A program made the translations under genes and the position numbers. A stretch of 64,000 nt of DNA from Moraxella caprae DSM 19149 (lineage in GTDB: Bacteria; Pseudomonadota; Gammaproteobacteria; Pseudomonadales; Moraxellaceae), in assembly GCF_000426885.1 (NCBI RefSeq), contig NZ_AUGF01000017.1, positions 1 to 64,000 of the forward strand, read 5' to 3'. The notes below the pieces were generated by a model. It made no database searches. It saw nothing but the letters and a program-made list of their open reading frames with translations, and was not told the DNA's origin. This document shows positions 59,220 through 64,000 of this stretch, in pieces (the first letter of the stretch is position 1; every line of letters starts with the position of its first letter).

Positions 59220-59233
59220 ATAGATTTATAGAG

Positions 59234-59259
59234 AAATCCGCTTTTTGCAAAGCGGATTT
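59234..59259 (+). terminator. Terminator after the enoyl-CoA hydratase-family gene
   Basis: AAATCCGCTTT and AAAGCGGATTT form an 11-bp stem with TTGC loop. Confidence 0.85.
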
Positions 59260-59262
59260 GAT

Positions 59263-59675
59263 TTACTGCCCCGCTTGTGAGCAGACATAGCCAAAGTTTG
59301 CTCTCGCCTGCCCTATAAGGAATCACTCTGTACCAGTCTTTTGAGGGATAAATGGATACATAACCTTCATAACTGTCTGCATTGTTGCCTTGCTTGTATA
59401 ATGAATGATATTATCAAAGTCATTTTTACGAGCAACGCAGTCATAATAATCAAAATTTTTCGTTTGCCAATAGCTTTTACCATCTAAATTTTGAATAGTT
59501 TTAAAATCTGTTCGTATCCACACACTAACTATTACCCACCGCCTGTAAAAGACTTGGCACGCACGCTGTCTTTGTCTAAATACTCTTTAAAGTTGTTGGT
59601 TTCGTCCGTTTAAACCCAATTACTAGTAAAAGCAGGTGTAGCAAGCATTAGGATGATACATAGATATTTTTTTAT
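59263..59675 (-). pseudogene. Surface-adhesin-E-like small exported protein, decayed
   Basis: Minus-strand remnants in order: a signal peptide KKYLCIILMLATPAFTSNWV, then a stop, TDETNNFKEYLDKDSVRAKSF, stops and a frame change, then VWIRTDFKTIQNLDGKSYWQ with YYDCVARKND, and after an in-frame TGA, GQARANFGYVCSQAG. The paired-cysteine 'YDC...VC' layout with 'DKDSV' resembles small surface-adhesin E-type proteins. At least three inactivating changes are present. The stretch from here to the RT stop (59676-59770) is AT-rich and empty. Confidence 0.65.
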
Positions 59676-59770
59676 AAAAACTCCTGTTAAAAATATATAC
59701 AAAAAAATTTTCTATTATATTGATATAAAGAATAATTATTTAAAATTTTTTTAAAATAAACTTCATAAGC

Positions 59771-61289
59771 CTATTTCTTAATTTTAGTATTGAGTATTTT
59801 CCAGTGCCTTCTAACTTGATGGCGAATTTTATCTGATTGCATAATTTTTGCCGAATTGTAAGCATAACCCAAAAAATTACCCCAAACCTGACGCTGAAAA
59901 ACCCATTTATCTTTCTTATTTAATCGTCTAATATATCTTTTTGATTTTTTAGCACCGATATATGAATATCTATAATGTAATCGATTGATAAACAACTTGC
60001 CTTTCGTATTATTTTGAATTCTTTTTGAGTAATATTTACAGCGTTTAACGCCTTGACTCATTTTCATATAATACTGTGCTAAAGCTTGATTTTTGAGATA
60101 GATATTTGTACCATCAAAACTAAATCCTAAGTATTCAAATCTTCTGTTTGAACTATTTTTGTTAATTTGACCACCAAACTCTTGCAGGCACTTAACGCTA
60201 TTATTTTCTTTAAAAAAATAAAATATTTGGGTTTTTTCTTGTTTAATGTTTAACTTGGTAATTTTAGATATTGAATCTTCTAATAATACCAATATCTCAT
60301 TTTTAAGAGAGCTATTACAAACAATCACAATATCATCGGAATATCTCTTATATATTCCGCCAATTTTCTGTACTTCTTGATGAATATAGGTATCAAAATT
60401 AATCATATAAATATTTGCCAAAGTTGCACTAATAGCAGAGCCTTGGCAAATGCCTTTATATAAATTTTTTTCTGTGTTATTACGTTTTTGGCTATAAATA
60501 ATGCCTTTACTTCGGATATATTTAAGCTCCCTTAATTGACAAAAAGCTACCGCCTCTTGCGAATATAGATGCGTAATTGTTTTAATTGATTTTTGTTTGT
60601 ATTTTCCTTCATGATTTAGAATAATTTTCTCTTTAAATAATTCAAATATTTTTTCATAATCTATGTATGAAAACTGAGTAATTGCCTTATAGACATTATA
60701 ATGGTCTTTGGGTAGAGTGTCGTTTTCTTTTAATTCTAGCACGCTTTTCCAGGCATTTTTTAATAAGGCGTGGTCAAGATTATCAAAAAATCCCTCTATA
60801 TCTACTGTGATGACTGTCAGTTCTTCTTGTTGTGCACGGTGTTTTATAACATCAAAAACTTCTTTGGCAAAATCTATATTACATTTACCCGAACCATCTA
60901 CTGTAGTTATTTTTCTATAAGCAGTTACCACATCGCCAAGATTATTTTGATTTAACTGTTTTTCGTAATGAATCTGCAAAAGATAAGCATAATAAGCAAA
61001 AATATTAGCAATCCCAATGATTGGCATAATAAATATCACGCACCTTGGGTTTTAGGCGTACACGCTTACCATTGTGTAATATATTGCCGTCTTGGTCATA
61101 CTGTTTGCGAAATTTAGGCGTGATTATTTGTGTATGAATGAAAGGACAAAACGCATGTTTGGCTATTTTTTCAGGATTGGTAATATAGCGAATTACTTGA
61201 TTTTTGCTTTTAGAAGTGATTGGCAATCCGATATGAGGGTATCTTTTTAGTTTAAACCAAGAGGGGTCTTTGACTTTTTTTGATTTCAT
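59771..61289 (-). pseudogene. Reverse transcriptase of antiviral 'unknown group' type (DRT2-like), single frameshift
   Basis: The gene is split into two frames by one extra base near 61007. Part 1 (from ATG 61289) reads MKSKKVKDPSWFKLKRYPHI and ends KVRDIYYANHWD. Removing one T from GATTGC continues it as ANIFAYYAYLLQIHYEK in the long second frame, giving about 505 residues. RT motifs are intact: VITVDIEGFFDNLDH, then KGICQGSAISATLANIYM, and YSDD as the catalytic aspartates. There is no maturase or endonuclease domain and no retron VTG motif. The N-terminal 'RYPHIGLP..ITNPEKIAKHAF.PFI' style recalls defence RTs of the DRT2 kind. The split could be mutation, sequencing error or programmed shift. 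AT-rich relative to neighbours; a structured ncRNA lies just upstream. Confidence 0.82.
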
Positions 61290-61309
61290 AATTGTTGCAG
61301 AATAAAAAA

Positions 61310-61584
61310 TGAAAGTAGGCGGAGTACGCATAACAGCCAGTAAGTACACCTTACGCTTCTATCAGAAGAAGCACCCCAATTGTAGAATAATAATACTATG
61401 TATCATCAAATCAAAGGATATAAATATGCTAAGTTTCAATGCATTCACAGCAATTAACATCATAAAGCAGTTGACATTTCTGTCCAAGTGCTTTATAAAA
61501 GCTATCCGTACTGACATATTCAGTACGCAAACCCAAGATGGGCAGTTTAATTGGCAAACTTAACTGACTTGCTACCTACTTTCA
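61310..61584 (-). ncRNA. Structured ncRNA upstream of the reverse transcriptase
   Basis: Read on the minus strand, the region opens TGAAAGTAGG and closes with its exact complement CCTACTTTCA, 20 bases before the RT start codon. Inside are a stem CGTACTGA/TCAGTACG (61507-61527), a long hairpin ATAAAGCA/TGCTTTAT with inner TTG/CAA and ACA/TGT pairs and a GAAA tetraloop (61462-61496), and GCTTCT/AGAAGC (61355-61372) within an outer GGGGTGC/GCGTACTCC helix. A promoter predicts transcription starting at the first bases of the fold. This is the arrangement of the template RNA of retron and DRT2-type systems. Confidence 0.75.
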
Positions 61585-61590
61585 AGGTAA

Positions 61591-61619
61591 ATTTTACTAC
61601 ACCAAAAAATTTTTTGCAA
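61591..61619 (-). promoter_or_regulatory. Promoter of the RT-associated ncRNA
   Basis: On the minus strand TTGCAA (61614-61619), exactly 17 bases, then TAAAAT (61591-61596). The predicted start, about 7 bases further, falls at 61585-61584, where the terminal stem of the ncRNA begins. Confidence 0.65.
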
Positions 61620-61620
61620 T

Positions 61621-61650
61621 AAAAACCACTCATTAAGAGTGGTTTTTATT
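61621..61650 (-). terminator. Terminator of katA
   Basis: AAAAACCACTC and GAGTGGTTTTT form an 11-bp stem with a 5-base loop and flanking T residues on both strands, 28 bases after the katA stop. It insulates the ncRNA promoter from katA transcription. Confidence 0.9.
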
Positions 61651-61677
61651 GTATTTAAAAAATTATACAAAATGCTT

Positions 61678-63756: not shown

Positions 63757-64000
63757 GGCTCTGGTCTAAAAAGTATGCTAAACCCAACCATAGTTAATAT
63801 AATGAAACACCAACTCAAATGCTTTGAAATGGTTTTCTAGCTTTTTAGAAAAACAGCAAGTTCTCCTAAATGCTCGCCTGACGAAGGTTCTCAGTCTGGT
63901 GTTATTGCCTTCAATACCCACAGTAAAGCGTTTACCAACTTGTTTTAAAGAGTGCTTAAAGGCAGTTAAAAAGCTATCCCAATCATCACAAGCAATTTTG
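63757..64000 (-). mobile_element. Second IS1-family element, cut by the window edge
   Basis: The left end GGCTCTGGTCTAAAAAGTAT matches the ends of the copy at 39909 and of the MITE at 29087. The interior continues in the same orientation with high similarity to the 39909 copy, but with many base differences, so the copies are not recent twins. Only the transposase 3' end is in the window. Confidence 0.85.
63778..64000 (-). CDS. IS1-family transposase, C-terminal part (partial at window edge)
   Basis: Open from the window end to the TAG before the inverted repeat. The sequence contains KIACDDWDSF, KQVGKRFTVGIEGNNTRLR and ends FHYINYGWV, the same C-terminus as the 39930 frame. The N-terminal zinc-ribbon half lies outside the window, so whether this copy is functional is unknown. 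Confidence 0.8.
   Translation of the reverse strand, partial: KIACDDWDSFLTAFKHSLKQVGKRFTVGIEGNNTRLRTFVRRAFRRTCCFSKKLENHFKAFELVFHYINYGWV

What the first reader, a model, noticed from the sequence alone, without database searches (positions are those of the whole stretch)
59771..61619. Reverse transcriptase with an upstream structured template-like RNA: candidate DRT2-like antiviral system
Seen: an RT with intact catalytic motifs and no intron or retron hallmarks. Just 5' is a 275-nt region closed by a perfect 10-bp terminal stem, with at least three internal hairpins and a 17-bp-spaced promoter whose start falls at the terminal stem. Known: DRT2-type defence RTs copy an upstream ncRNA by rolling-circle reverse transcription into a repetitive gene, and retrons use a comparable RNA-RT layout. 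Inference: this is a member or relative of those systems. The island is AT-rich and flanked by a decayed gene and a strong terminator, as expected for an acquired defence module.
Basis: partly seen in the sequence, partly recalled or inferred. Interest (0 to 1): 0.85.

Follow-up and report, generated by a model that had tools for sequence, protein, structure and literature searches.

The report
Divergent DRT2 antiviral reverse transcriptase locus
A bacterial chromosome carries a (here broken) phage-defence reverse transcriptase together with the RNA it is thought to copy into a hidden repetitive gene, and its group seems to stitch that gene together at a different place from the one studied so far.

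Summary
The RT (59771-61289, minus) is split by one frame break near 61.0 kb; both pieces match DRT2 best (PADLOC 364.7 and 73.2 bits). The 275-nt RNA upstream (61310-61584, minus) is real: a covariance model built from four relatives alone finds it at exactly these ends (111.7 bits, E 9e-23), and 15 of 25 pairs show two-sided changes (0 of 500 shuffles). Four other genomes carry an unbroken RT with this RNA, one of them at the same chromosomal site. The five RTs form one clade (95/94), apart from the KpnDRT2-like controls. The published ACA/ACA template-jump rule works in both KpnDRT2-like controls but in none of the five. Instead, in the window and two relatives, joining the template at an AU-rich 4-nt repeat inside the -10 box gives a 105-108-nt endless ORF and TTGAC(A/T)-17-TATAAT (as good in 3 to 6 of 3000 shuffles); L013 gives a weaker version, L016 none. 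I read this as DRT2-type defence with a shifted jump site: a new variant of a known kind. The window's own copy is probably inactive. The jump site and translation of neo are predictions without experiment.

The parts
59771..61039 (-). RT gene, larger piece (422-aa ORF, YSDD); its first about 11 codons lie before the frame break
61005..61289 (-). RT gene, N-terminal piece in another frame, likely ATG at 61289; frame break near 61.0 kb
   Evidence: relatives L013-L016 are unbroken here
61310..61584 (-). structured ncRNA, 275 nt, with terminal stem, 5' handle hairpin, template and 3' scaffold
61575..61584 (-). terminal stem, 5' arm
61310..61319 (-). terminal stem, 3' arm
61508..61526 (-). 5' handle hairpin
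61355..61377 (-). GGGG and the hairpin after it; GGGG pairs with CUCC at 61321-61324
61591..61619 (-). likely ncRNA promoter TTGCAA-17-TAAAAT
   Evidence: consensus match only, no excess over shuffles
61391..61498 (+). predicted repeat unit of the concatenated DNA, 108 nt = 36 codons without stop; a 105-nt register scores equally; ends ambiguous within the repeated ATAA (61387-61390 and 61495-61498)
61471..61476 (+). -35 hexamer TTGACA of the predicted neo promoter
61494..61499 (+). TATAAA in the chromosome, predicted to become TATAAT when repeats are joined
   Evidence: inference
61413..61428 (+). AAAGGA and in-frame ATG (61426) of the predicted neo ORF

Best explanation
A divergent clade of DRT2 phage defence. 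Shown by computation: a DRT2-family RT gene, and before it a conserved structured ncRNA. Inferred by analogy with KpnDRT2 (PMC11100668, PMC12039810): the RT binds the ncRNA, copies its central template again and again by jumping from the template's 5' end back to its 3' end, and on infection the repetitive DNA becomes double-stranded and is transcribed from a promoter that exists only across repeat junctions, giving an endless hydrophobic protein (Neo) that stops growth. Specific to this clade, also inferred: the jump uses an AU-rich 3-4-nt repeat inside the -10 hexamer, so that joining turns TATAAA, TATTTA or TATTGA into TATAAT (TAGAAT in L013), instead of ACA repeats in the spacer. In this genome the RT is frame-broken, so the system is probably off here. 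The confidence given is for the whole statement; for DRT2-type defence by a neo gene, wherever the jump lies, I would say 0.75.
For: DRT2 HMM and structure matches. RNA conserved with two-sided changes in 15 of 25 pairs, 0 of 500 shuffles; left-out window found by a model of the four relatives, 111.7 bits. Junction scan recovers the published kind of answer in L033 and L038 and in the clade a -10-box join as the top answer with a repeat of 3 or more bases in window, L013, L014, L015; as good in score and repeat length in 4, 69, 6 and 3 of 3000 shuffles. In-frame ATG after a GGA-containing motif 34, 37, 34 and 31 nt beyond the -10 (window, L013, L014, L015). Hydrophobic residues 22 and 24 of 37 in window and L013.
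Against: L016 gives no join of score 10.5 or more (its best, 10.0, is a 129-nt unit). L013 needs TAGAAT and is common in shuffles (69 of 3000). Endless frames alone are common: 1193, 431, 829 and 1506 of 5000 shuffled units for window, L013, L014, L015; window and L013 also have an open frame on the ncRNA strand. No codon-position signature in the template (18, 14, 17 differences of 37 each). The window has other joins of similar score, for example CCAA 108 nt with AATAAT. A contiguous TTGACA-17-TATAAA promoter already lies in the chromosome, pointing away from the unit. The sequences are related, so the odds may not be multiplied.
Confidence: 0.45

Rival explanations
1. DRT2-type defence by a neo gene, but the jump lies elsewhere: another short repeat (for example CCAA in the window, or TGT in L015 with extra bases added) or a jump without homology.
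For: Window join CCAA, 108 nt, endless, TTGACA-17-AATAAT; L015 TGT gives TTGACT-16-TATAAT. L035 uses yet another motif by the same scan (ATCT, 111 nt). KpnDRT2 and the controls jump in the spacer.
Against: The L015 TGT unit is 104 nt and the window TGT unit 100 nt, both not 3n. CCAA has no counterpart at the same place with 3n length in L013-L015.
Confidence: 0.3
2. The RT and ncRNA work together in defence, but the product is not a neo gene: the RNA templates another DNA product, as other Class 2 DRTs do (DRT9 homopolymer, DRT10 tandem repeats).
For: No codon-level conservation in the template; L016 lacks a promoter at the join; DRT9 and DRT10 show that related RTs make other products (PMC12632851, passages).
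Against: HMM scores are far higher for Drt2 (364.7) than for Drt9 (47.7) or RT_UG17 (74.3); -35, ATG spacing and reading frame recur in four of five.
Confidence: 0.15
3. Only a decayed relic: RT and RNA of this clade no longer have a defence role.
For: Frame break in the window RT; its terminal branch is 0.72 against 0.27 for L013.
Against: L013-L016 have no stop inside the RT match; dN 0.41 against dS 2.56 between window and L013 (405 codons, dS near saturation); RNA stems kept by two-sided changes.
Confidence: 0.04

Closest known systems
KpnDRT2 (Klebsiella pneumoniae DRT2; PDB 9c0i; PMC11100668, PMC12039810)
   Same: RT family, no other domain found, ncRNA of about 280 nt before the RT, handle hairpin, template, 3' scaffold; predicted 3n endless unit (108 against 120 nt) and TTGACA-17-TATAAT across repeats
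   Different: about 53% or less identity even within the clade and below NCBI's Drt2 cut-off; no ACA/ACA pair giving a 3n unit; predicted join inside the -10 box; -35 read as Leu-Thr; this copy is frame-broken
Group II intron RTs and retrons
   Same: RT domain; retrons also have an RNA beside the RT
   Different: maturase 74 of 300 bits, retron St85 47.9 of 235; no intron RNA in the Rfam scan
DRT9 and DRT10 (UG17)
   Same: Class 2 RTs with an ncRNA and repetitive DNA products (PMC12632851, passages)
   Different: PADLOC 47.7 and 74.3 bits against 364.7 for Drt2

Membership tests
DRT2 | RT best matched by Drt2 profiles | tested here: met
   PADLOC 364.7 and 73.2 bits for the two pieces; four intact relatives 449.3 to 469.5
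DRT2 | score above NCBI's Drt2 equivalog cut-off (390 bits) | tested here: not met
   297.1 and 48.1 bits for the pieces; intact L004 377.7. Speaks for a divergent branch, not an equivalog of KpnDRT2
DRT2 | structured ncRNA directly before the RT | tested here: met
DRT2 | pseudoknot in the 3' scaffold | tested here: inconclusive
   GGGG/CUCC pairs kept in five sequences and a helix across it in single folds; the crossing was read by eye, not scored
DRT2 (KpnDRT2-related) | ACA-1/ACA-2 bounding a 3n template with promoter across the join | tested here: not met
   met in L033 and L038, not in window, L013, L014, L015, L016, nor L035
DRT2 | 3n endless ORF and sigma-70 promoter formed across repeats | tested here: inconclusive
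   found in window, L014, L015, weaker in L013, not in L016
DRT2 | phage-triggered concatemeric cDNA and Neo protein | not testable with these tools
   needs experiment
Group II intron or retron RT | model score above cut-off; intron RNA | tested here: not met
   74 of 300 and 47.9 of 235 bits; Rfam gave only a tRNA in the window. msr-msd was not searched for as such

The most novel reading that the evidence does not exclude
A DRT2 clade of one bacterial family performs rolling-circle reverse transcription through an AU-rich micro-repeat inside the -10 hexamer, so that each template jump itself completes the promoter of the hidden neo gene (TATAAA/TATTTA/TATTGA to TATAAT). The ACA jump rule is then one of several, and divergent neo genes have been missed because searches assumed it.
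Probability: 0.45. Interest if true: 0.65.

Novelty: new variant of a known kind. Interest (0 to 1): 0.5.

Why it matters
Tang et al. (PMC11100668, section 10) wrote that ncRNAs could be predicted in divergent DRT2 clades but that Neo annotation was harder, which suggested other ways of rolling-circle copying and neo expression. This locus and its four relatives give one such clade a concrete, testable prediction: where the jump occurs, how long the unit is, and why the promoter is complete only after joining. If right, the motif-free junction scan used here is a way to look for further hidden neo genes.

Tried and rejected
Retron or group II intron: rejected on scores. ACA/ACA jump in the window: rejected because the unit is 100 nt, not 3n. 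The contiguous plus-strand promoter TTGACA-17-TATAAA as the functional element: set aside because it points out of the unit and its second hexamer differs among relatives (TATAAA, TATAAA, TATTTA, TATTGA in window, L013, L014, L015; sequences). Close relatives in viral contigs: none with L004's RT, one partial 30% match with an alignment query. Phage and plasmid records: 3 and 20 with a match, all under 60% identity. Distant DRT2s of the same family: of 15 loci (L018-L032), 3 (L020, L027, L030) gave an open 3n join scoring 10.5 or more, and the five-sequence RNA model gave one chance-level match among them (L029, 14.1 bits, E 0.38). A 10-nt repeat around the L012 template gives 151 nt, not 3n. 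Codon-level selection on neo: no sign. Of six regions fetched to see what other genomes have downstream of the hydratase, I listed ORFs in three (L059, L061, L062) and not in L060, L063, L064.

Errors of mine: one search used a wrong stretch of L033 (1501-2748 instead of 1048-2295), which still overlapped the RT; one search printed the wrong upstream stretch of L033, mended; one search failed because alignment files share record names with the sequences, redone.

Full report
What is there. On the minus strand, 59771-61289 encodes an RT in two overlapping frames; the break lies near 61.0 kb. With PADLOC Drt2 the larger piece scores 364.7 bits and the N-terminal piece 73.2; the best other family reaches 74.3 on the larger piece. 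NCBIfam's Drt2 model is also the best but below its cut-off of 390 (297.1 and 48.1 bits), and the intact relative L004 reaches 377.7, so this is a divergent branch. The best solved structures by sequence are KpnDRT2 chains (9c0i and others, E about 1e-43). Intron and retron models are far below their cut-offs.

The RNA. Upstream, 61310-61584 is a 275-nt element closed by a perfect 10-bp stem, z -4.55 against shuffles. Four relatives (L013 of the same genus; L014, L015, L016 of another genus of the family) have an alignable element at the same place, with z -3.95, -7.01, -3.76 and -3.37. On their alignment 25 named pairs are 93.3% formed, 15 have two-sided changes, and the covariation score is 0.544, against 0.235 +/- 0.037 in shuffles (0 of 500 as high) and 0.06-0.17 when slid. 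One measure does not exceed shuffles: further pair types (18; 117 of 500 shuffles as high). The structure was chosen with these sequences in view, so I also built a model from the four relatives alone, with the same helices. In the 15 sources I gave it (the window and 14 of 69 loci held), it found the window element at exactly 61310-61584 with 111.7 bits, E 9e-23; the next match had 13.2 bits. The five-sequence model matches 5 of 348 genomes of the family, at the five sites it was built from (stricter filters); the other 17 genomes with an RT match have none, so their RNAs differ or are too distant. GGGG/CUCC and a helix between the UUAAGUUUG region and the 3' part would cross, as in a pseudoknot; this was read by eye, not scored.

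Family and site. In a tree of 28 RTs the five form one clade (95/94); with three Bacteroidota RTs they form a group (98/96), apart from the E. coli, Photobacterium and L033 RTs; two of the Bacteroidota rows have long branches, so their place is unsure. L013/L004 lies at the same site, between the same hydratase and catalase. The hydratase is 92% identical but the RT 53% (N-terminal part 73%), so RT and flanks have not diverged in step: exchange at the site, separate arrival or very fast change of the RT. The closest genome by the hydratase, G004 (94%), has two other ORFs there, without a Pfam match at 0.01. In the genus, DRT2 over its best piece was seen in 2 of 22 genomes, window included (weaker RT matches in others).

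How it may work. In KpnDRT2 the RT copies a template between two ACA motifs again and again; the double-stranded product joins a -35 to a -10 box 17 bp apart and makes an endless ORF (PMC11100668, PMC12039810, parts read). I scanned for joins that give a repeat of 3n length, an endless frame and a promoter across the join. In the controls L033 and L038 the top answer is of the published kind (CTGT 111 nt; TGT 117 nt, both TTGACA-17-TATAAT); L035 gives ATCT 111 nt. In the clade, the top answers with a repeat of three or more bases lie in the -10 box: window ATAA 108 nt (a 105-nt register ties), L014 GTAT 108 nt, L015 ATAT 105 nt with TTGACT, L013 GTA 111 nt with TAGAAT; L016 gives nothing at 10.5 or more, its best being 10.0. 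With repeats of two bases allowed, L013 also has joins with TATAAT. Keeping the -35 in place and shuffling the rest, joins at least as good in score and repeat length occur in 4 (window), 69 (L013), 6 (L014) and 3 (L015) of 3000 shuffles, and in 0, 1 and 4 for L033, L038 and L035; by score alone in 8, 69, 10, 10, 3, 1 and 6 (L016 was not tested, having no candidate). ACA pairs give an open 3n unit with a strong promoter in L033 and L038 and in none of the other six ncRNAs tested.

Support and limits. An in-frame ATG follows a GGA-containing motif 34, 37, 34 and 31 nt after the predicted -10 in window, L013, L014 and L015; L013 has seven further in-frame ATGs and L014 one, so the choice there is mine. 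The -35 hexamer is read as Leu-Thr in all four. Against it: endless frames are common in shuffled units (1193, 431, 829 and 1506 of 5000), codon positions do not differ in divergence (18, 14, 17 of 37), and L016 does not fit. The sequences are related, so their odds may not be multiplied.

State of this copy. RT dN is 0.41 and dS 2.56 to L013 (405 codons; dS near saturation), so the gene was under constraint for long, but the window's terminal branch is 0.72 against 0.27 and the frame is broken. I expect it to be inactive unless the break is an assembly error, which I cannot tell from one assembly.

Novelty. Paper searches for DRT2 with reverse transcriptase, neo and rolling circle (373 papers, 20 listed), template jumping and homologs (2 papers), Moraxella (0 papers) and never-ending/neo since 2025 (231 papers, 15 listed) showed the two founding papers and work on other DRTs in what was listed, and nothing on this clade. 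Most subscription papers are not in the library. That the host is a Moraxella is my recollection from gene content, not a tool result.

Noticed in passing
window 59220-61677; L004/L013 (G011); L059 (G004); L061 (G007): The stretch downstream of the hydratase varies between species: DRT2 in two genomes whose RTs are only 53% identical although the hydratase is 92% identical, two other ORFs in G004, and another arrangement without the catalase in G007. It may be a site where genes are exchanged.
   Followed up: partly
window 63778-63999: An ORF running off the window's end matches the IS1 transposase (Pfam DDE_Tnp_IS1, 41.5 bits, cut-off 24.1), close to the end of the 64037-base contig.
   Followed up: partly
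L003 (G000:C9:10889-11179): The same genome has a second RT-like stretch in a 413-aa open frame (48.8 bits to Drt2; Pfam RVT_1 33.4 bits); its kind was not determined.
   Followed up: partly
L012, upstream of its RT: A Bacteroidota DRT2 has matching ends GGGTCGAG/CTCGACCC around an upstream stretch, a 10-nt direct repeat 151 nt apart, and a hydrophobic endless 120-nt frame with a 6-nt repeat. Whether it makes a neo gene from a Bacteroidota-type promoter is open.
   Followed up: partly
L035 (Photobacterium damselae plasmid pPHDD1): Here too the ACA/ACA rule fails, but an ATCT join gives a 111-nt endless unit with TTGACA-17-TATAAT (4 of 3000 shuffles as good).
   Followed up: partly
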